Positions 1-14,134 of a stretch of DNA of 14,583 nucleotides are shown here, one piece after another. Every line of letters starts with the position of its first letter. Positions within the stretch are counted from its first letter, which is position 1. Both the position numbers and the translations under genes were made by a program. The notes under the pieces are model-generated. The model searched no databases and was not told the DNA's origin. It was given only the letters and a program-made list of their open reading frames with translations. Source of the stretch: Microbacteriaceae bacterium (GTDB taxonomy: Bacteria; Actinomycetota; Actinomycetes; Actinomycetales; Microbacteriaceae); NCBI GenBank assembly GCA_025463615.1, contig JAODAU010000352.1, positions 1 to 14,583 on the forward strand, written 5' to 3'.

Positions 1-1334
1 GTGTCGGTGAAATGGAGGGCGGCGTCCGGACCGAGCTCGCGTCCGAGGCCGCTCTGCTTCATGCCGCCGAACGGGGTGGTGTAGCGCACGCTGGAGTGCG
101 AGTTGACGGACAGGTTGCCGGACTCGACACCCCTGGCCACGCGGATGGCCCTGCCCACGTCGCGGGTCCAGATCGAGCCGCTCAGCCCGTAGATCGAGGC
201 GTTCGCGAGCGCGATCGCATCGGCCTCGTCGTCGAACGGCAGCACGCTCACGACCGGCCCGAAGATCTCCTCCGTGACCACGCGATCCGTGCGCGAGTCG
301 GGCAGCAGCACGGTCGGCGCGAACCAGAACCCCGCGCCATCCGGAGCGCTGCCGCGGAACGCGACCTGCCGGTCGTCGGGCAGGAACGACCGCACCTTCT
401 CCAGGTGCGCCGCGGAGACGAGCGGCCCCATGTCGGTGCCCTCGTCGCCCGGCGCGCCCACCCGGTACGCCTGCACCGCCGGCTCGAGAAATTGCAGGAA
501 CTTCTCCAGAACCGACCGCTCGACGAGTATCCGGGACCGCGCACAGCAATCCTGTCCTGCGTTTTCGAAGACGCTCGAGGGGGCGGATGCCGCGGCGCGC
601 TCCAGGTCGGAGTCGGCGAAGACGATGTTCGCGCTCTTGCCGCCGAGCTCCAGCGTGACCGCCTTGACCTGGTCCGCGCATCCGGCCATCACGCGTTTGC
701 CGGTCTCGGTGGACCCGGTGAAGACGATCTTGCGAACGTCCGGGTGCGAGACGAACCGTTCGCCGACGACCGAGCCCCTGCCCGGCAGCACCTGGAACAG
801 TCCCTCCGGCAGCCCCGCCTCGAGGGCGAGCTCGCCGAGGCGCAGCGCGGTGAGCGGCGTCCACTCGGCCGGTTTGAGCACCACGGCGTTGCCCGCGGCG
901 AGCGCGGGCGCGAAGCCCCAGCTCGCGATCGTCATCGGGAAGTTCCACGGCACGATCACGCCGACGACGCCGAGCGGCTCGAGGAACGTGATGTCGATGC
1001 CGCCGGCCACCGGGATCTGCGAGCCGAGCATGCGCTCCGGCGCCGCCGAGTAGTAGGTGAGCACGTCGCGAACGTGGCCCGCCTCCCAGCGGGCCTGCGT
1101 GATCGGATGCCCCGAGTTCAGCACCTCGAGCTGCGCGAGCTCCTCGTTCGCCTCGCCGACCGCCGCCGCAAATCGCCGCAGCGCGTTCGCGCGTTCGACG
1201 GGTGCGAACGCGGCCCAGGTCTTCTGGGCGTGCACGCCGCGGGCGACCGCGTCATCCACCTCGTCGACGGTGGTGTGCGCGACGGTCTGGAAGCCCTCCC
1301 CGGTGGCCGGGTTCACGAGGGTGATCGCGGTCAT
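1..1334 (-). CDS. Aldehyde dehydrogenase (NAD(P)-dependent), C-terminus cut by window
   Basis: This is an ALDH-superfamily enzyme that oxidises an aldehyde to a carboxylic acid in the cytoplasm. Reading left from an ATG at 1334, 444 codons are in the window and the C-terminal tail is missing. Seen in the translation: the substrate-channel motif VVGVIVPWNFP (about 123-133), the cofactor-loop lysine in LKP (about 153-155), FTGSTETGK (about 205-213), the general base in LELGGK (Glu about 229), the nucleophile in NAGQDCCARSR (Cys about 263), EEIFGPVVSVLPF, and the late PFGGMKQSGLGRELG. The start overlaps the stop of the upstream hydrolase as ATGA, so the two are translationally coupled. Next to a gamma-glutamyl ligase and a PuuD-type hydrolase, the likely substrate is a gamma-glutamylated aminoaldehyde (PuuC-like role). 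That substrate is inferred from context; the family assignment is secure. Confidence 0.93.
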   Translation of the reverse strand, partial: MTAITLVNPATGEGFQTVAHTTVDEVDDAVARGVHAQKTWAAFAPVERANALRRFAAAVGEANEELAQLEVLNSGHPITQARWEAGHVRDVLTYYSAAPERMLGSQIPVAGGIDITFLEPLGVVGVIVPWNFPMTIASWGFAPALAAGNAVVLKPAEWTPLTALRLGELALEAGLPEGLFQVLPGRGSVVGERFVSHPDVRKIVFTGSTETGKRVMAGCADQVKAVTLELGGKSANIVFADSDLERAAASAPSSVFENAGQDCCARSRILVERSVLEKFLQFLEPAVQAYRVGAPGDEGTDMGPLVSAAHLEKVRSFLPDDRQVAFRGSAPDGAGFWFAPTVLLPDSRTDRVVTEEIFGPVVSVLPFDDEADAIALANASIYGLSGSIWTRDVGRAIRVARGVESGNLSVNSHSSVRYTTPFGGMKQSGLGRELGPDAALHFTD

Positions 1335-2110
1335 GCGTTCTCCCGCTTCGCGCGCGCAGCGTCGACGAGCCCCGCGAACAGCCGCAGGTCGTCGTCCTCT
1401 TCGGGGTGCCACTGCACGGCCACGCCGAACGCCGCCGACTCGAGCTCCACGGCCTGCACCAGCCCGTCATCCGATCGCGCCGTGACGACGAGCCCGTCGG
1501 CGAGCCGATCGACGGCCTGGTGGTGGTACGACTTGACCGCCAGCTGCGGGGTCTCCGCGAGCAGCCCGCCCTCGACCGACACCTCGTTCACACTGAACCG
1601 GCCGCCGCCCGCGTTGTACCGGTCCGAGCCCACCAGCTCGGGCAGGTGCTGGTGCAGCGTGCCGCCCAGCGTCACGTTGAGCACCTGCAGCCCGCGGCAG
1701 ATGCCGAGGAACGGCAGGTCGCGCTCGATCGCGCCGGCAAGCAGCGCGTCCTCCCACGCGTCCCGGTCGAGCCGGGGCTCGTCGGTGAGCAGGTGCGGCT
1801 CCTGGCCGTAGCGGGCCGGGTCGACATCCCTGCCGCCGGTCACGATCAGCCCGTCGAGCCCGTCGAGCACGCGCGACACGATGGATGCCGACACCGGCTG
1901 CGGGGGCAGCAACACCGCCACGCCTCCCGCGCGGGTCACCGCGTCGAAGTACTGCCGGGGCAGGAACGCCGCCTGCACGTCCCACACCCCGGTCTGCGCC
2001 TGCTCCAGGTAGGTCGTGAGGCCGATGATCGGAATGCCGGTCGCTGAGGCACTCGAAGCGGCCCCTTCGAGATCCTCAGGGACCGACAACTCAGAACCGC
2101 TCAAAACCAC
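1331..2110 (-). CDS. Gamma-glutamyl-gamma-aminobutyrate hydrolase family protein (PuuD-like, class I GATase fold)
   Basis: This 259-aa protein belongs to the peptidase C26 / class I glutamine amidotransferase-like family. In the Puu pathway such enzymes release glutamate from gamma-glutamyl-GABA. Seen in the sequence: LIVTGGRDVDPARYG (about 88-102), the nucleophile elbow PFLGICRGLQVLNV with Cys138, GGTLHQHLPE just after it, and the partner pair in QWHPEEDDD (His235, Glu237), so the catalytic triad is complete. I chose the GTG at 2110 because GAGAGGG lies just upstream; it overlaps the end of the ligase gene by 20 bp. TTG codons at 2104 and 2089 are alternatives. Family proteins usually begin close to the PIIGLTTY strand, so the first 25 residues may be a variable extension. 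It presumably acts last in the pathway, recovering glutamate from the oxidised amide. Confidence 0.92.
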   Translation of the reverse strand: MVLSGSELSVPEDLEGAASSASATGIPIIGLTTYLEQAQTGVWDVQAAFLPRQYFDAVTRAGGVAVLLPPQPVSASIVSRVLDGLDGLIVTGGRDVDPARYGQEPHLLTDEPRLDRDAWEDALLAGAIERDLPFLGICRGLQVLNVTLGGTLHQHLPELVGSDRYNAGGGRFSVNEVSVEGGLLAETPQLAVKSYHHQAVDRLADGLVVTARSDDGLVQAVELESAAFGVAVQWHPEEDDDLRLFAGLVDAARAKRENA

Positions 2111-3461
2111 GAACCCTCTCCCAGTCGGTCACGGCCGCGTCGTAGGCCTTCAGCTCGATGCGCGCGTTGTTGAGGTAGTGCTCGACGACCTCGTCGCCGA
2201 ACGCCTCGCGCGCGATCTCAGACGAGGCGAACAGCTCGGCCGCCTCACGCAGCGTCGTCGGCACGCGCGGCGCGTCGCTCGAGTAGGCGTTGCCCTCGAA
2301 CACCGGCTCCAGCTCCAGCTCGTGCTCGATGCCGTAGAGGCCGCCCGCGATCAGCGCCGCGGTGGCCAGGTACTGGTTCACGTCGCCGCCGGGCACGCGG
2401 TTCTCCACGCGCATCCCGAGCCCCGTGCCCACCACGCGCAGCGAGCAGGTGCGGTTGTCGAGGCCCCACGCCACCGCGGTCGGCGCGAAGCTGCCGTCGA
2501 CGTAGCGCTTGTAGGAGTTGATGTTGGGCGCGAAGAACAGCGTCAGCTCGCGCATGGTCTTCAGCTGGCCGGCGAGGAAGTGGCGGAACAGCTTCGACAT
2601 CCCGAGTTCGTCGTCCGGGTCGGAGAACACCGCGCTGCCGTCGACCCCGCGGAACGAGATGTGGATGTGGCACGAGTTGCCCTCGCGCTCGTTGAACTTG
2701 GCCATGAAGGTGAGCGCCTTGCCGTGCTTGTCGGCGATCTCCTTGGCCCCGTTCTTGTAGATCGAGTGGTTGTCGCAGGTCACCAGCGCGTCGTCGTACT
2801 TGAACGCGATCTCCTGCTGGCCGAAGTTGCACTCGCCCTTCACACCCTCGCAGTACATGCCGGCGCCCTCCATCGAGACGCGGATGTCGCGCAGCAGCGG
2901 CTCCATGCGCGTCGACGCGAGCAGCGCGTAGTCGATGTTGTAATCGCTCGCGGGCGTGAGCCCGACGTAACCGCGGCTCCAGGCATCCCGGTAGGTGTTG
3001 TCGAAGACGATGAACTCGAGCTCGGTGCCCACGAACGACTTGAGCCCCTTCACCTCGAGCTTGCGCAGCTGCGCCTTGAGGATCTCGCGGGGCGAGGCCG
3101 TCACGGGCTTCTCGTCGAGCCAGGTGAGGTCGGCCATCACGAGGGCGGTCCCCGGCAGCCACGGCACCAGCCGCAGCGTCGACAGGTCGGGGATCATGGC
3201 CATGTCGCCGTAGCCCTTCTCCCAGGAGGAGATGGCGTAGCCGTCGACGGTGTTCATCTCCACGTCGACCGCCAGCAGATAGTTGCAGCATTCGGCGCCG
3301 TGGCGCGCGATCTCGTCCTTGAACAGCCGTGCGGACGCACGTTTGCCCACCAGACGGCCCTGCATGTCGGTGAAGGCCACGATCACCGTGTCGATCTCGC
3401 CGCCATCGATCAGCGCGTCGAGTTGCTCGATCGTGAGCATTCCGGTGCGGGTTGCCTGCAT
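2091..3461 (-). CDS. Glutamine synthetase-like gamma-glutamyl-amine ligase (GlnA3/GlnA4/PuuA type)
   Basis: This 456-aa glutamine-synthetase-fold enzyme probably joins glutamate to an amine using ATP rather than making glutamine for housekeeping. The N-terminal beta-grasp domain carries VIVAFTDMQGRLVGKR (27-41). The catalytic domain has the metal-binding GTELEFIVF (145-153), the ATP/metal motif GNSCHIHISF (261-270), NSYKRYVDGSFAPTAVAWG (315-333) and arginine-rich DNRTCSLRVVG (335-345). A GGAGGAG ribosome site at 3467-3473 fixes the ATG at 3461. It heads an overlapping operon with a gamma-glutamyl hydrolase and an aldehyde dehydrogenase, and an ethanolamine-permease-like gene diverges from it. 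Established parallels are PuuA (putrescine), Streptomyces GlnA3 (polyamines) and GlnA4 (ethanolamine). The permease tips the inference towards ethanolamine or another small amine. The exact substrate cannot be read from the sequence. Confidence 0.9.
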   Translation of the reverse strand: MQATRTGMLTIEQLDALIDGGEIDTVIVAFTDMQGRLVGKRASARLFKDEIARHGAECCNYLLAVDVEMNTVDGYAISSWEKGYGDMAMIPDLSTLRLVPWLPGTALVMADLTWLDEKPVTASPREILKAQLRKLEVKGLKSFVGTELEFIVFDNTYRDAWSRGYVGLTPASDYNIDYALLASTRMEPLLRDIRVSMEGAGMYCEGVKGECNFGQQEIAFKYDDALVTCDNHSIYKNGAKEIADKHGKALTFMAKFNEREGNSCHIHISFRGVDGSAVFSDPDDELGMSKLFRHFLAGQLKTMRELTLFFAPNINSYKRYVDGSFAPTAVAWGLDNRTCSLRVVGTGLGMRVENRVPGGDVNQYLATAALIAGGLYGIEHELELEPVFEGNAYSSDAPRVPTTLREAAELFASSEIAREAFGDEVVEHYLNNARIELKAYDAAVTDWERVRGFERF

Positions 3462-3645
3462 GCGGGCTCCTCCAGTTCGGGTCGATTTCGACCATTACAC
3501 CACGACCCGGTAAACCCGATCCGCAGTCACTGTAACAAGCTATTTACATCCAAAGGTAGACACCAAGTACCAATAAACGCCATGCTCTCGATAACCTGCG
3601 CGGCAGGCGACCCCCACTTCCCGTCCTTTCCCCCTGGAGGATTGC
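3462..3645. promoter_or_regulatory. Divergent control region of the amine locus, with two dyads
   Basis: This 184-bp gene-free stretch separates the ligase and the permease and is more AT-rich than its surroundings. Two dyads are visible. A perfect one, GGTCGA-TT-TCGACC, spans 3480-3493, directly after a minus-strand TGTAAT (plus 3494-3499) that could be the -10 of the ligase operon; a repressor there would cover its start site. The second, TGTAA-n8-TTACA with an AGCT core, spans 3531-3548. GTAAC and TTTAC inside it keep the AC-n9-AC spacing of GlnR half-sites, but the match is weak. The permease ribosome site GGAGG is at 3636-3640. No regulator gene adjoins the region in this window. Confidence 0.5.
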
Positions 3646-5163
3646 ATGGCAGAGAACTCGGTGTCCGGCGTCACCTACACCAAAGCGGAGGCGGGCTACT
3701 TCGAGAAGCGCAAGCTCAAGCGCAGTGCCGGCATCTGGGGGATCTGGGGGCTCGGCGTCGCGGCCGTCATCTCGGGCGAGTTCTCCGGCTGGAACTTCGG
3801 CACGTCGACCGCCGGGTTCGGCGGCATGGCCATCGCGGTGGTGATCGTGATCGTCATGTACTTCACCATGTATTTCTCCATCGGCGAGATGGCGGCGGCG
3901 ATGCCGCACACCGGCGGCGCGTACTCCTTCGCCCGTGCGGCGATGGGACCGTGGGGCGGCTTCGTAACCGGGCTCGCGGAATCCATCGAATACGTGGTGA
4001 CCACCGCGGTCGTCGTCTACTTCTCGGCGCTCTACGCCAACTCCGCGCTCCACTCGTTCTTCGGGTTCGAGGTGCCGAGCTGGGTGATGTGGATCATCCT
4101 CTACGCGATCTTCGTCGTCGTGAACTGGGCCGGGGCATCCATCGGCTTCCGACTGGCGATCGTGGTCTCGATCATCTCCCTCGCCATCCTCGCGATCTTC
4201 GTCGTCACCGCATTCGCGACCGGCGGTTTCGACCCGGCGAAGCTCTGGGACGTGAAGCCGGATGCCGGCCAGAGCACCTTCCTGCCCCACGGCTTCGGGC
4301 CGGTGCTGCTCGTCATCCCGTTCGCGATGTGGTTCTTCCTCGGCATCGAGGAGCTGCCGCTCGCCTCAGAGGAGACCCACAACCCCACGCGGGTCATCCC
4401 CCGCGCGGGCATCATCGCCCTGATCACCCTGACCGTCGCTGCGGTGGCCATCTTCATCGTCAACACGGGCGTGCTGGGAGCGGTCGCCACCCAGAAGTCG
4501 GGCCAGCCGCTGCTCGACGGGTTCGCGGTGATGGTTCCGAAGCAGCTCGAGGGGGTGCTCGCGCTGGCGGCACTGATCGGGCTCCTCGCGTCGCTCCAGG
4601 GCATCATGTACGCCTACGGCCGCAACCTCTACTCGCTCTCCCGCGCGGGCTATTACCCGAAGGTGCTGTCGCTGACCGGCAAGAAGCAGACGCCGCTCAT
4701 CGCGCTGATCGTGGGAGCGGTGATCGGGTTCGTGGCCCTGGTCGTCGTCGACTCCGCGGGCGGCACCGCGGGCACTGCCGGGGCGATCGTGCTCAACATC
4801 GCCATCTGGGGAGCCGTCGTCTCGTACCTGATGCAGATGATCTCGTTCGTCGTGCTGCGTGTGCGCTTCAAGAACGCGGTGCGCCCGTACAAGAGCCCGA
4901 CCGGCATCGCCGGCGCGGTCATCGCCGGCATCATCTCGGCCGTGATCTTCGTGGCCTTCCTGTTCAACAGCGCCTACGTGACGGCGATCATCGCGATCGC
5001 GGTCGTCTACGTGGTCGGGATCGCCATCTTCGCGATCTGGGGCCGGCGGCGCCTGGTACTCGCGCCCGAGGAGGAATACGCCCTCAGCGGCGGGCTGCAT
5101 CGGGACCCCGAGGCCGAGGGCTACGACGCCATGGAGACCGAGGTCTTCGACGGCACCAAGTAG
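3646..5163 (+). CDS. APC-superfamily permease, ethanolamine permease-like
   Basis: This 505-aa polytopic inner-membrane transporter has about 12 hydrophobic segments and a charged C-terminal tail (EEEYALSGG onwards). The N-terminal sequence YFEKRKLKRSAGIWGIWGLG followed by AAVISGEFSGWNFG (about 39-52), and GGAYSFARAAMGPWGGFVTG (about 90-109), are the pattern I associate with proton-coupled ethanolamine permeases of the amino acid-polyamine-organocation superfamily. The start is fixed by CTGGAGG five bases before the ATG. It is monocistronic, divergent from the ligase operon, and followed by a hairpin terminator. Its likely role is to bring in the amine used by the ligase/dehydrogenase/hydrolase set. 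Ethanolamine is the best guess from family resemblance; a polyamine or amino acid cannot be excluded. Confidence 0.88.
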   Translation: MAENSVSGVTYTKAEAGYFEKRKLKRSAGIWGIWGLGVAAVISGEFSGWNFGTSTAGFGGMAIAVVIVIVMYFTMYFSIGEMAAAMPHTGGAYSFARAAMGPWGGFVTGLAESIEYVVTTAVVVYFSALYANSALHSFFGFEVPSWVMWIILYAIFVVVNWAGASIGFRLAIVVSIISLAILAIFVVTAFATGGFDPAKLWDVKPDAGQSTFLPHGFGPVLLVIPFAMWFFLGIEELPLASEETHNPTRVIPRAGIIALITLTVAAVAIFIVNTGVLGAVATQKSGQPLLDGFAVMVPKQLEGVLALAALIGLLASLQGIMYAYGRNLYSLSRAGYYPKVLSLTGKKQTPLIALIVGAVIGFVALVVVDSAGGTAGTAGAIVLNIAIWGAVVSYLMQMISFVVLRVRFKNAVRPYKSPTGIAGAVIAGIISAVIFVAFLFNSAYVTAIIAIAVVYVVGIAIFAIWGRRRLVLAPEEEYALSGGLHRDPEAEGYDAMETEVFDGTK

Positions 5164-5882: not shown

Positions 5883-5921
5883 CCCCAGTTAGGGGGCAGA
5901 GTAGAACGTCAGGTCTGCCCC
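5883..5921 (-). terminator. Hairpins at the end of the ABC permease gene
   Basis: GGGGCAGA (5893-5900) pairs with TCTGCCCC (5914-5921), straddling the permease stop codon at 5909-5911. A competing small hairpin, CCCC-AGTTA-GGGG, lies at 5883-5895. Neither is followed by a T-run on the minus strand. They probably mark the end of the leftward five-gene operon. Confidence 0.4.
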
Positions 5922-7363
5922 GCCGAAAAGCCGCGTTTCCGGGCGATCGCGATGGCTCCGAGCACGGCGACGACGCCGGCCGCCGCCTCCAGGACCATCG
6001 CCGGCACGGAGCCCGGTTGCCCGGCGAGCGAGGCGAGGTAGAGCACCGCGGTCTCCGCGCCGAGCGTGACGACCGACGTGAGCATCATGCCCGCGGTGGC
6101 GCCGCTCGAGTACGGCACGGCCGTGCCGCACAGGTATGCCACGGACGAGAGCGATATCGCGGCGACCCCCAGCTGCGGCGCCGCCCGCACAAACTCGGAC
6201 GGCGCGGGAACGACGGCGGCCAGCAGGCCAAGGCACACGACCAGGCTTGGCAGCGCGGCGCCGAGCCACTGCCCGATCGCCTGCCGCGAATACGACAGCC
6301 CCGCCGACCGGTACACCCAGGACCACGGCGCCGAACGGCCGTACGCCGTCTCGGAGAGCGTGGAGAACAGCAGCGGGAAGGCGACCAGCGCGACCCCCGG
6401 GGGCGCGTTGCCGAGACGCACGAGCACCACCATCGCCGCGGCCAGCAGCCCGGCCAGGAGCCAGCCCAGCTGGCCGACCGGATGCCTCACCGACAGCACC
6501 ACCTCGCGGAGGGTGAACGCGGCCATCCCCGCACCCAGCCGCGGAAGCGGGATCAGCCGTCGCACGCGCTGCAGGGTCTCGCGCGGCGCGGCGAGCGCCA
6601 CCGCCGCGAGGTCCGCGGCGAGCGCGACGGCGACCACGGCGAGGACGACAAGTGCGGCGGATGCCGTGGTCGGCATCCGCTCGCCGGCCCACAGCAGGCG
6701 CACGAGCGCGTCGACCGCGCCGCCGCGGTGGTCGGCCAGCGAGACCAGCACGTCGACGAGGAGCAGGCCCACCCCCACGAATCCGGCGACGATGCCGACG
6801 AGCCGGGCGGCGGAGCCCGCCATCCCGGCAAGGTTCGCCACCGCGGCGAACGCGTGGCACACGACGAGGGCGGCGACGGCGAACGCGATTCCCGTGAACA
6901 GGAGGGTGACGAGGGTGAGCGGCGGAGTCGGCTGCTGCTGGGCCTCGAACCACGCCGGGCCCGCACCCACCGCCGCGGCCGCGATGCACAGGCCCACGGT
7001 CGTCGGCACGTATTCGCCGACGGCGATCTGGCGCGGTCGCGCGCCCGCGATACGGGCGCCGATGGTGAGCCCCGAGCCCGTCGGCCCGAACACCACGAGA
7101 ATGAGCGCGACCGCGGCGGTCGTGATGAGCTGCGTCTGCACGAGGCCGCCACGCACCTGCGCGAGCTGCGCCGACGCGTGGGGGCCGAACACGCCCGCGA
7201 AGTTCTGGCTGTAGAACGCGTACACCAGCGCATTGAGCGCGATCACGACGGCGCACCCGGCGACGATGGCGAGCCGGGCCCCGACCACGCCGCCGAACGT
7301 GCGGCGCAGGTGGTTGCGCAGCGACCGGGTGCTCGCGACGGCGACGGAGAGGGTGGCGCTCAC
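5909..7363 (-). CDS. ABC transporter permease, 484 aa, peptide-export type context
   Basis: This is a large hydrophobic protein with roughly 10-12 membrane segments (for example around 32-50, 82-98, 118-135, 153-172 and 185-208, and several after 300) and no nucleotide-binding motif. It would be the membrane partner of the ATPase encoded just upstream. Its GTG start overlaps the ATPase stop as GTGA, so the two are coupled. I do not see a named family signature; it looks like an ABC-2-like or YydJ/SkfF-like membrane subunit. It is last of five overlapping leftward genes that begin with a small hydrophobic peptide, so export of that peptide, or self-protection against it, is the inferred job. 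Confidence 0.82.
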   Translation of the reverse strand: MSATLSVAVASTRSLRNHLRRTFGGVVGARLAIVAGCAVVIALNALVYAFYSQNFAGVFGPHASAQLAQVRGGLVQTQLITTAAVALILVVFGPTGSGLTIGARIAGARPRQIAVGEYVPTTVGLCIAAAAVGAGPAWFEAQQQPTPPLTLVTLLFTGIAFAVAALVVCHAFAAVANLAGMAGSAARLVGIVAGFVGVGLLLVDVLVSLADHRGGAVDALVRLLWAGERMPTTASAALVVLAVVAVALAADLAAVALAAPRETLQRVRRLIPLPRLGAGMAAFTLREVVLSVRHPVGQLGWLLAGLLAAAMVVLVRLGNAPPGVALVAFPLLFSTLSETAYGRSAPWSWVYRSAGLSYSRQAIGQWLGAALPSLVVCLGLLAAVVPAPSEFVRAAPQLGVAAISLSSVAYLCGTAVPYSSGATAGMMLTSVVTLGAETAVLYLASLAGQPGSVPAMVLEAAAGVVAVLGAIAIARKRGFSAGQT

Positions 7364-8130
7364 GCGCGGCTCGCGAGCAGGTCGAGGCCCTCGAAGAATC
7401 GCGTCGACGATCGCTGCGCGGTGACGTCGATGCCCGTCATCCGCTCGAAGGAGCGCTCGAGCGTCTCGGAGCCCCGGCCGGTCTCGAACTCCAGCATGGA
7501 CGCGTCGGCCACCAGCCTTCCCTCGCGGAGCACGAGCACCCGGTCGCAGAGCTCCTGGGCCACGAGCAGGTCGTGCGTGGAGACGAGCACCGTGTTGCCG
7601 CGATTCGCGTAGACGCGCAGCAGGGTCTTGACGATAGCGGCGGACTCGGGGTCGAGGCCGCGGAACGGCTCGTCCAGAACCAGCAGCTGCGGCTCGTGCA
7701 ACAGCGCGGCGACGACCTGCAGCTTGCGCCGCATCCCGTGGCTGTAGGTGGCGATGAGCCGGCCGAGCGAGTCGGTGAGGCGCATACCGTCGAGGAGCGC
7801 CCGCTCCGCCTCGGGAACCCGGCGCAGCCCGCGGATGCCGGCCACCATGTCCAGGTACTCGCCGCCGGTGAGAAGTTCCGCCTGGGGCAGGTCGTCGGGG
7901 CAGAACCCGATCCTGCCCCGGGCGGCGGCGACCAGGTGGTCGCCATCGCTTGCGTACACGTCGCCGGCCGACCGGGTGATCAGGCCGACGATGATGTGCA
8001 GCAGCGAGCTCTTGCCCGCGCCGTTCGGGCCGACGAGGGCGACCAGCTCGCCGTCGTCGAGCTCGAACGTGACCTCCGAGAGAACCGCGCGGGTGCCGTA
8101 GGTCTTGGCGAGGTCAGTCGCGACGAGCAT
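7360..8130 (-). CDS. ABC transporter ATP-binding protein, 256 aa
   Basis: This is a complete nucleotide-binding subunit that energises transport through the permease encoded downstream. Motifs in order: Walker A GPNGAGKSS (34-42), a Q-loop region around PDDLPQAELLTGGEYL (78-93), a divergent signature SHGMRRK (130-136) of the kind found in ABC-2-type exporters, Walker B LLVLDEP (149-155), D-loop GLDP (158-161) and the switch histidine in STHD (184-187). An open frame continues further upstream, but the start is placed at the ATG at 8130 because GAAAGGA lies at 8136-8142 and the family N-terminus begins there. The first 17 bp overlap the end of the M50 gene. Confidence 0.93.
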   Translation of the reverse strand: MLVATDLAKTYGTRAVLSEVTFELDDGELVALVGPNGAGKSSLLHIIVGLITRSAGDVYASDGDHLVAAARGRIGFCPDDLPQAELLTGGEYLDMVAGIRGLRRVPEAERALLDGMRLTDSLGRLIATYSHGMRRKLQVVAALLHEPQLLVLDEPFRGLDPESAAIVKTLLRVYANRGNTVLVSTHDLLVAQELCDRVLVLREGRLVADASMLEFETGRGSETLERSFERMTGIDVTAQRSSTRFFEGLDLLASRA

Positions 8131-8647
8131 GGGGATCCTTTCGGGCGCGCACGGCGTGCAGGGCGGCGCCGTCCGAGCGCCCGGGCCGTAGTTCGAGGAG
8201 GTGGGTGAGGAAGAGCAGGACGAAGGGCGCGCGCACCAGGAAGGGGCCGCCAGGAAGGAGCAGGGCGAGCGCCGGCGCGAGGCCGAAGGCGGGACCCGCG
8301 ACCGACACCAGAGCGTCGCCGTACCGCCCCAACGACGTCCCGACGATCGACGCCCGCCGCAAGTCGCCCTCCGAGCGGAGCGCGGGCTCGATAGCGACGG
8401 CTCGGCCGGTGAGCACGGCCGCCGCCGCGTGGCCCAGTTCGTGGGTGAAGTAGCTGAGGCAGTACAACGCGACTGCAAGAAGCGGCGACCACGCGATCCC
8501 TGTCGGCAGCCCCACCGCAGAGAGGAGGCCACCGGCGAGCGCGCCGGGTAACACGGTCACCGCCGCGACCGGGGCGACCGCCCGCACGCTGGCACGCGCG
8601 GCGACGATCGCCCCGATCGCGAGGGACTCAGCGATAGGGGTTGTCAC
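8114..8647 (-). CDS. Membrane metalloprotease, M50 (site-2 protease-like), 177 aa
   Basis: This is a small polytopic membrane protein with the zinc-binding HExxH motif inside a hydrophobic segment (THELGHAAAA, His69/Glu70/His73). A second conserved element, RPGRSDGAALHA (154-165), matches the PxxxxDG aspartate motif of intramembrane site-2 proteases. Hydrophobic segments flank both motifs. M50 proteins cleave peptides within or near the membrane; small M50 members such as YydH occur in peptide-antibiotic operons next to ABC transporter genes. It starts with GTG at 8647, overlapping the preceding gene by 20 bp, and its own end overlaps the ATPase gene. The inferred role is to cut the 83-aa peptide encoded two genes upstream. 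Family placement is good; the substrate is a guess. Confidence 0.82.
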   Translation of the reverse strand: MTTPIAESLAIGAIVAARASVRAVAPVAAVTVLPGALAGGLLSAVGLPTGIAWSPLLAVALYCLSYFTHELGHAAAAVLTGRAVAIEPALRSEGDLRRASIVGTSLGRYGDALVSVAGPAFGLAPALALLLPGGPFLVRAPFVLLFLTHLLELRPGRSDGAALHAVRARKDPHARRD

Positions 8648-8936
8648 GGCCCACGCGTCGGCGCGACGCCCGGGCGCTCAGCACGCCGACCACGAGACCG
8701 ACGACGCAGAGCGTGAGAGGGATGATGATCGCGCCGGGACCGGTCGTCGCCACCACGTCCGCGCCGGAGGCACCCGTGGAGACGATGAACGGCACACCCG
8801 CGCCCGGCGTGCCCGAGAGCGCGGCGGAGAACGCGACGATCCATACCGCGGCGATGCCGACGAGGCCGACGAGCAGCCCGATCACCGCGCCGCCCAGGCC
8901 GGCGAGCCCGACGGTGAGCGATCGATTTCGGGCCAC
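8628..8936 (-). CDS. Small membrane protein, 102 aa, candidate accessory or immunity protein
   Basis: I do not recognise a family. The start is taken as the GTG at 8936, two bases after the stop codon of the peptide gene; there is no good ribosome site, so translation probably depends on coupling. The first hydrophobic segment is glycine-rich (GLAGLGGAVIGLLVGLVGIA, about 10-29) and runs on towards residue 41. A Gly/Thr/Ser-rich middle follows. A second segment, IIIPLTLCVVGLVVGVLSA (about 70-88), precedes a basic tail (RASRRRVGRDNPYR). Its end overlaps the M50 gene by 20 bp. Its position between a putative toxin-like peptide and its processing enzyme fits an immunity or chaperone protein. This is inference only. 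Confidence 0.68.
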   Translation of the reverse strand: MARNRSLTVGLAGLGGAVIGLLVGLVGIAAVWIVAFSAALSGTPGAGVPFIVSTGASGADVVATTGPGAIIIPLTLCVVGLVVGVLSARASRRRVGRDNPYR

Positions 8937-8938
8937 GC

Positions 8939-9190
8939 TCAGATCTTGTGGCACTTGACCTGCACCTGCCAGATGTTCAGGCTGACCACGCCGTCGAGCA
9001 CGCCGCCGTGCTGGGCGCACAGGATGACGGCCGCGGCGACGATCGTCACCGCCAGGGCCAGCAGCACGATGATCGCGATCACGATGATGATCGGGATCAC
9101 GTCGTTGCGCCGCTCGAGCCGCGCCCGCAGCATCGTCGCGTTCGCCACGAGGCCGGTGGTCGCTGGGAGGGTGGCGAGAAGAGCTGACAT
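8939..9190 (-). CDS. Small hydrophobic peptide, 83 aa, putative secreted peptide precursor
   Basis: This is the first gene of the five-gene leftward operon, with a clear ribosome site (GAAAGGA, plus 9197-9203) six bases before the ATG. Layout: a 30-residue N-terminal part ending in charged LRARLERRND (21-30), a very hydrophobic stretch VIPIIIVIAIIVLLALAVTI (31-50) running to residue 57, then a 26-residue C-terminal segment between and after two cysteines, Cys58 and Cys80, containing HGGVLDGVVSLNIWQVQ. The two cysteines could form a disulfide loop. A membrane-embedded precursor beside an M50 protease and an ABC transporter suggests that the C-terminal part is cut out and exported as a bacteriocin or signalling peptide. 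I know no family with this sequence. A short membrane protein of other function remains possible. Confidence 0.72.
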   Translation of the reverse strand: MSALLATLPATTGLVANATMLRARLERRNDVIPIIIVIAIIVLLALAVTIVAAAVILCAQHGGVLDGVVSLNIWQVQVKCHKI

Positions 9191-9237
9191 CGAGTGTCCT
9201 TTCGAAGGGAGGGGAGCCGGAGATTCGACCTGTTGGT

Positions 9238-13281: not shown

Positions 13282-13369
13282 TTCACAAAACGCAGGAGAT
13301 TCTTCTCGAAGGCGCGCCGACGACACGATCTCGCCGCGATTCGCGAAGAATCTCCTGCGTTTTCGGAGG
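13282..13369 (+). repeat. Palindromic interspersed repeat, copy 1 (88 bp)
   Basis: AAAACGCAGGAGATTCTTC (13287-13305), continuing one mismatch later to 13310, is matched by its inverse complement at 13340-13363, giving 24-base terminal arms around about 29 bases. The outer flanks, TTCAC on the left and CGGAGG on the right, are shared with copy 2 and give the element a direction. It lies between the HxlR stop codon and the next gene. Confidence 0.85.
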
Positions 13370-13979: not shown

Positions 13980-14045
13980 GGCAGTTCTCCGTCCTGCCCG
14001 GGACGGTACTCGCGCGCCCGCCCCGGCGTAAGGCCCGCTCCTCCC

Positions 14046-14134
14046 TTCACAAAACGCAGGAGATCCGTCGGGAAACCGCGGTCGCGGCATCCGCACGTCG
14101 ACGAACGCGGCAGATCTCCTGCGTTTTCGGGAGG
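14046..14134 (+). repeat. Palindromic interspersed repeat, copy 2 (89 bp)
   Basis: AAAACGCAGGAGATC (14051-14065) and its exact inverse complement (14113-14127) form the arms. A second, weaker pairing, CGTCG with CGACG (14066-14070 and 14099-14103), continues inside. The flanks TTCAC and CGGGAGG agree with copy 1 and show the same orientation, while the centre is unrelated in sequence. It sits between the acidic-protein gene and the tRNA terminator. Confidence 0.85.

What the first reader, a model, noticed from the sequence alone, without database searches (positions are those of the whole stretch)
5909..9190. Five-gene peptide / membrane protein / M50 protease / ABC operon without a modification enzyme
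Seen: an 83-aa hydrophobic peptide, a 102-aa membrane protein, a HELGH membrane protease, an ABC ATPase and an ABC permease are all leftward and overlap or nearly touch (2-bp gap, then 20-, 17- and 4-bp overlaps) behind one promoter. Known: M50 peptidase plus ABC pair occurs with the epipeptide YydF in Bacillus (YydH, YydI, YydJ), but there a radical SAM enzyme (YydG) modifies the peptide. Here no radical SAM, lanthipeptide, cyclodehydratase or PqqD-like gene is present, and the operon ends in a convergent spacer. Inference: an unmodified, intramembrane-cut peptide is exported as a bacteriocin or signal.
Basis: partly seen in the sequence, partly recalled or inferred. Interest (0 to 1): 0.78.

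Follow-up and report, generated by a model that had tools for sequence, protein, structure and literature searches.

The report
Probable TMcin-like bacteriocin operon
Five tightly packed genes look like a kit for making, cutting and exporting a small membrane-inserting antibacterial peptide of the recently described TMcin type, in a form that differs in several details from the one TMcin studied so far.

Summary
The five leftward genes are real and placed as described. A better match than the YydF locus is the TMcin bacteriocin cluster (PMC12328743, PMC13252029): a one-helix precursor (TmcA), a two-helix escort (TmcE), an S2P-type protease (TmcP) and an ABC exporter (TmcB, TmcC). Here the 83-aa peptide has one helix; it and 19 relatives share an ungapped block with Asn29 (20 of 20), the helix, Cys58 (20 of 20) and Cys80 (19 of 20). 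AlphaFold2 gives helix 31-60, then a hairpin 63-71/76-82, the published TMcin shape. The protease has HExxH at 69 and Asp at 159 (published TmcP: 68, 158). The 102-aa protein has two hydrophobic segments, the permease about 12.

Differences: no Trp pair flanking the helix; protease resembles M50B, not DUF3267; gene order A-E-P-B-C. No TMcin sequence was available for direct comparison, and there is no bench result. Verdict: new variant of a known kind.

The parts
8939..9190 (-). 83-aa precursor peptide (TmcA-like): variable leader 1-28, transmembrane helix about 31-60, Cys58-Cys80 loop
   Evidence: AlphaFold2 model
9011..9100 (-). codons of the predicted helix, residues 31-60
   Evidence: mean pLDDT of the three blocks 91, 95, 85
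8945..9004 (-). codons of the predicted two-stranded hairpin, residues 63-82 (strands 63-71 and 76-82)
   Evidence: block pLDDT 64-72
9197..9203 (-). GAAAGGA, probable ribosome-binding site of the peptide gene
   Evidence: read from the sequence
8628..8936 (-). 102-aa protein with two hydrophobic segments (18-36, 68-86) and a 31-residue stretch between them; TmcE-like escort by position and topology, possibly also self-protection
   Evidence: no Pfam or NCBIfam family above its cut-off
8114..8647 (-). 177-aa S2P-type (M50) membrane protease, TmcP-like; HELGH at residues 69-73, Asp159-Gly160
7360..8130 (-). 256-aa ABC ATPase, TmcB-like; Walker A from residue 34, Walker B ending Asp153-Glu154
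5909..7363 (-). 484-aa membrane protein, TmcC-like permease; about 12 hydrophobic segments; no Pfam or NCBIfam match

Best explanation
The operon makes a TMcin-type bacteriocin. The precursor is inserted in the producer's membrane, N-terminus inside. The two-helix protein escorts it to the S2P-type protease, which removes the leader just before the helix (somewhere in residues 29-36, inferred). The two cysteines close a disulfide on the outside, through a general oxidase encoded elsewhere or in air. The ABC pair pulls the helix-containing peptide out of the membrane and releases it; in a target membrane it inserts and assembles, hairpins side by side, into a pore. Shown here: gene set, order, conserved residues, predicted helix-hairpin fold, catalytic motifs. 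Inferred from the TMcin papers: the role of each gene, the disulfide, export of the helix, pore formation and killing.
For: Gene-by-gene match in kind to the TMcin core set of PMC13252029: one-helix precursor with two conserved Cys, two-helix protein, HExxH/Asp S2P-type protease, ABC ATPase, 12-helix permease. Positions agree: HExxH at 69 and Asp 159 here against H68 and D158 in TmcP; Walker B Glu 154 here against E156 in TmcB; Cys58 to the end is 26 residues here against 28 (C25 to R52) in TMcin-G1905. If the cut left the first Cys as residue 25, as in TMcin-G1905, the product would begin at Ile34 with 50 residues, 72% hydrophobic by my residue set (65% published). Of 20 aligned peptides: no gap from Asn29 to residue 82, Cys58 in 20, Cys80 in 19, 21 residues between the two places in 20, leader lengths 18-60. 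AlphaFold2 on that alignment predicts helix 31-60 and strands 63-71 and 76-82. A peptide relative and a protease relative are listed on contigs of identical length, 55,737 bp. NCBIfam's PmtC model (peptide export) is among the ATPase's 206 matches (E 1.4e-28), although generic ABC models score higher.
Against: TMcins have two highly conserved Trp flanking the helix; here Trp stands at the N-terminal helix end in 1 of 20 (P0024, at the place of residue 34), and the conserved Trp74 (16 of 20) lies in the hairpin turn. The protease does not match DUF3267 (PF11667), the family of TmcP, at E <= 10 (HMMER's filters drop most matches above 0.1). The AlphaFold2 model of the protease is unusable (mean pLDDT 51.4). 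The alternation of polar and apolar columns in the two strands is not significant (p 0.26 and 0.16), and confidence in the hairpin is middling. P0021 lacks the second Cys. Co-occurrence of peptide and protease outside the window rests on one contig length. No activity has been measured.
Confidence: 0.74

Rival explanations
1. A signal peptide: the protease cuts inside the helix and the 26-residue C-terminal loop is released as a pheromone, with the ABC pair clearing remnants.
For: S2P-type proteases are known to release signal fragments (recalled, not from a call). The C-terminal part is conserved.
Against: The helix is more conserved (0.66) than the loop (0.56) and equally ungapped, unexpected for a discarded part. 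No receptor, kinase or regulator gene is in the operon; of ten neighbours scanned, one is an HxlR regulator, 3.4 kb away. A loop freed outside would hardly need an ABC exporter (inference).
Confidence: 0.1
2. The peptide is a permanent small subunit or regulator of the ABC transporter, which itself exports lipids or protects against envelope-active compounds; the protease turns the subunit over.
For: Single-helix small subunits of membrane complexes are common (recalled). Among solved structures the ATPase resembles phospholipid transporters of the ABCA group best.
Against: The leader varies freely while helix and Cys loop are fixed; a separate two-helix protein and a protease in the same operon stay unexplained; the set matches the TMcin cluster gene by gene in kind.
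Confidence: 0.1
3. An epipeptide- or daptide-like RiPP whose modification enzyme is encoded elsewhere in the genome.
For: The YydFGHIJ locus also combines a peptide, a membrane protease (YydH) and an ABC pair (YydIJ) (PMC7026026, passages).
Against: No modification gene in the operon or in ten neighbours scanned; the leader is the variable part, not a conserved recognition sequence. No genome is held for the window, so enzymes elsewhere could not be sought.
Confidence: 0.04

Closest known systems
TMcin-G1905 biosynthetic cluster (tmcB, C, E, P, A; Staphylococcus aureus plasmid pCT545)
   Same: Same five kinds of gene; one-helix precursor with two conserved Cys near the C-terminus; helix plus two-stranded hairpin predicted; HExxH and distal Asp at nearly the same residue numbers; no chemical modification enzyme other than the one for the disulfide.
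   Different: No helix-flanking Trp pair; 21 rather than 24 residues between the Cys; shorter precursor (83 aa against a 297-bp gene); protease resembles M50B (below its cut-off) and does not match DUF3267; operon order A-E-P-B-C, while the G1905 core operon is described as tmcB to tmcA with tmcP the fourth ORF; no tmcD or regulatory pair (PMC13252029 says non-staphylococcal clusters lack tmcD).
Epipeptide locus yydFGHIJ (Bacillus subtilis)
   Same: Peptide, membrane protease and ABC pair in one operon (PMC7026026, passages).
   Different: A radical SAM epimerase, YydG, modifies the peptide there and none is seen here; the product there has 17 residues, too short for a helix plus hairpin; no counterpart of the 102-aa protein.
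Daptides (Microbacterium paraoxydans)
   Different: Daptides carry a modified C-terminus made by several enzymes (recalled); no such gene was found in the operon.

Membership tests
TMcin | Precursor with a single transmembrane helix that is kept in the product | tested here: inconclusive
   Single helix in the precursor: met. Kept in the product: cannot be tested here.
TMcin | Two universally conserved cysteines closing a C-terminal loop | tested here: met
   Cys58 in 20 of 20, Cys80 in 19 of 20. The disulfide itself is untested.
TMcin | Two-stranded sheet after the helix | tested here: met
   AlphaFold2: strands 63-71 and 76-82, block pLDDT 64-72. Polar/apolar alternation of the strands not significant.
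TMcin | Two highly conserved Trp flanking the helix | tested here: not met
   Trp at the N-terminal helix end in 1 of 20; Trp74 (16 of 20) lies in the hairpin turn, not at the helix end.
TMcin | S2P-type protease gene (tmcP) | tested here: met
   HExxH 69, Asp159; spacing 90 in 3 of 3; M50B E 5.6e-5, 23.4 bits against a cut-off of 26.
TMcin | Protease of the DUF3267 family (true of G1905 TmcP; not stated for all TMcins in what I read) | tested here: not met
   PF11667 not listed for any of 3 members at E <= 10 (filters drop most matches above 0.1).
TMcin | Two-helix escort gene (tmcE) | tested here: met
   Two hydrophobic segments, 102 aa; by topology and position only.
TMcin | ABC ATPase plus 12-helix permease (tmcBC) | tested here: met
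   ATPase; permease 10 hydrophobic segments at cut-off 1.5, 12 at 1.2 and 1.0, 14 at 0.9 and 0.8.
TMcin | Detectable sequence homology to TmcA | not testable with these tools
   The TMcin plasmid is not in the collections; supplements closed. Of 16 NCBIfam families matched at E <= 1 by any of the 20 peptides, none is a TMcin model (best E 0.0029).
TMcin | Pore formation and killing of Gram-positive bacteria | not testable with these tools
   Needs a bench test.
Epipeptide (YydF) | Radical SAM epimerase with the precursor | tested here: not met
   None in the operon or in ten neighbours scanned.

The most novel reading that the evidence does not exclude
This is a separate class of helix-plus-hairpin bacteriocins that arrived at the TMcin design independently, with an M50B-like protease instead of DUF3267 and a hairpin of other charge pattern (acid at 66 in 17 of 20, base at 82 in 20 of 20; TMcin-G1905 pairs Lys32 with Glu49), so that 'transmembrane-helix bacteriocin' would be a design invented more than once.
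Probability: 0.2. Interest if true: 0.65.

Novelty: new variant of a known kind. Interest (0 to 1): 0.47.

Why it matters
The two TMcin papers that I found characterise one member, from Staphylococcus aureus. A divergent set with the same five kinds of part, but another protease family, free leaders and no Trp flanks, points to the features likely to be essential (helix, two Cys, hairpin, S2P cut, escort, exporter). The 20-sequence family gives a profile for finding more clusters; NCBIfam (20 peptides) and Pfam (the window's peptide) do not name it. It would also give a second producer in which to test whether the helix is exported intact.

Tried and rejected
YydF and daptide readings: rejected as best match, see rivals. 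ABC ATPase against plasmids: capped at 5000 records, all under 60% identity; I opened 3 of the 15 listed rows. Two Streptomyces ones lie in polyketide clusters with no peptide or protease listed beside them (that gene table is incomplete); the Nocardia one has no annotation in the stretch.

Searches for related loci found nothing: genome contigs with the protease (357 pattern matches, none confirmed) and with the six-peptide alignment A1 (199, none); viral contigs with A1, A2 and the protease alignment (335, 35 and 81, none); plasmids with the protease, peptide, permease and two peptide relatives. A control shows that the peptide negatives are weak: relatives used as queries against the window, E scaled to 7.3 billion bases, reach E < 1e-3 in only 4 of 19 cases with BLAST's low-complexity filter (a fifth, P0019, prints as 0.001), and E < 1e-4 in 19 of 19 without it. 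The protease negatives are stronger, but for close relatives only: the two known relatives score 1.8e-21 and 3.9e-29 in the same control.

The protein search with the protease scored only the 7996 candidates sharing most words, and the peptide profile search only 7992, so both lists may be incomplete. Model of the protease too poor to search with; no fold search was run. Solved-structure searches with the protease and peptide profiles: none at E <= 1. Hairpin alternation test not significant. Spacer hairpin no better than shuffles. PHROGs and PADLOC were not searched.

Full report
What is there. Five minus-strand genes, 9190 to 5909, in the order peptide (83 aa), 102-aa membrane protein, M50-type protease (177 aa), ABC ATPase (256 aa), permease (484 aa), spaced +2, -20, -17, -4 bp. 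The peptide gene has a good ribosome-binding site (GAAAGGA, 9203-9197, read). No promoter or terminator was found by consensus scan, and the spacer hairpin is ordinary.

Families. NCBIfam and Pfam name only the ATPase; the protease touches Peptidase_M50B below its cut-off; peptide, 102-aa protein and permease match no family above a cut-off. Ten neighbouring ORFs are ordinary: glutamine synthetase, peptidase C26, amino-acid permease, phosphate transporter, methyltransferase, HxlR regulator, and four without a family.

The peptide family. A first search found 5 relatives, a profile search 19 at E <= 1, the weakest at 9.2e-16 (only the 7992 candidates sharing most words were scored). In the alignment of 20 the leader varies in length (18-60) and sequence (mean pairwise identity 0.28). 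From Asn29 (20 of 20) to residue 82 there is no gap: helix 0.66, C-terminal part 0.56. Cys58 is in 20 of 20, Cys80 in 19 of 20 (Gly in P0021), with 21 residues between and 2-4 after. AlphaFold2 on this alignment: helix 31-60 (block pLDDT 85-95), strands 63-71 and 76-82 (block pLDDT 64-72), mean pLDDT 70.8, pTM 0.46.

What it matches. A literature search for peptide, intramembrane protease, ABC transporter and bacteriocin led to TMcins. I read the whole text of PMC13252029 (figures not held) and, of PMC12328743, parts 1-3 of 10, the discussion and passages. TMcin-G1905 is made from a one-helix precursor; TmcP (S2P clan, H68, D158) removes the leader, TmcE (two helices) escorts, TmcD (DsbA-like, in staphylococcal clusters) makes the Cys25-Cys50 disulfide, TmcBC (12-helix permease) exports it; the product forms large pores, modelled as a helix belt round a beta-barrel. 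The window's protease has HExxH at 69 and Asp at 159 (spacing 90 in 3 of 3 relatives; 90 in TmcP by the published numbers), the ATPase its Walker B Glu at 154 (E156 in TmcB), the permease about 12 hydrophobic segments (12 at two of five cut-offs tried, 10 at one, 14 at two), the 102-aa protein two. Short S2Ps often have similar spacing (recalled), so that number alone is weak; the sum of parts is the argument.

Where it differs. No Trp at the N-terminal helix end except in P0024; the conserved Trp74 (16 of 20) lies in the hairpin turn. Protease not DUF3267. Three residues fewer between the Cys. Gene order A-E-P-B-C; the 2025 paper mentions three arrangements, shown in a figure that I could not see. 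TMcin homologues in Actinomycetota were already reported, but the word Microbacteriaceae does not occur in the main text, and of 7 papers holding the string 'TMcin' only these two are, by their titles, about it. So the kind is known; whether this very branch was in the authors' tree is unknown.

Limits. The only co-occurrence evidence outside the window is equal contig length for P0003 and P0009. P0010, a third protease, is listed on a 2,596-bp contig, a length that none of the 19 peptides shows. Negative searches for the peptide are weak because of the low-complexity filter.

Reading. I give 0.74 to a TMcin-type bacteriocin operon by way of working; within that, about 0.2 is for a separate class of the same design.

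Noticed in passing
13287-13363 and 14044-14134: Two imperfect inverted-repeat elements of 77 and 91 bp (arms 24 and 27 nt, 96% and 81% complementary) share the arm sequence AAAACGCAGGAGAT / ATCTCCTGCGTTTT, 764 bp apart: perhaps a mobile or REP-like repeat.
   Followed up: partly
1331-5163: Peptidase C26, a glutamine synthetase and an amino-acid permease side by side; a glutamine synthetase and a gamma-glutamyl-GABA hydrolase are also adjacent on an Arthrobacter plasmid. Looks like a gamma-glutamyl amine-catabolism set (inference).
   Followed up: no
relatives P0015 and P0023: Two peptide relatives are named 'RDD family membrane protein YckC' by their source; at 80 and 82 aa, aligned with one helix, this is probably a wrong label.
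   Followed up: no
relative P0021: One relative keeps the first Cys but has Gly for the second: a decayed copy, a sequencing error or a form without disulfide.
   Followed up: no
relatives P0020, P0022, P0023: Three relatives have Gly for the conserved Trp74 together with Lys at 72, a possible sub-branch of the family.
   Followed up: no
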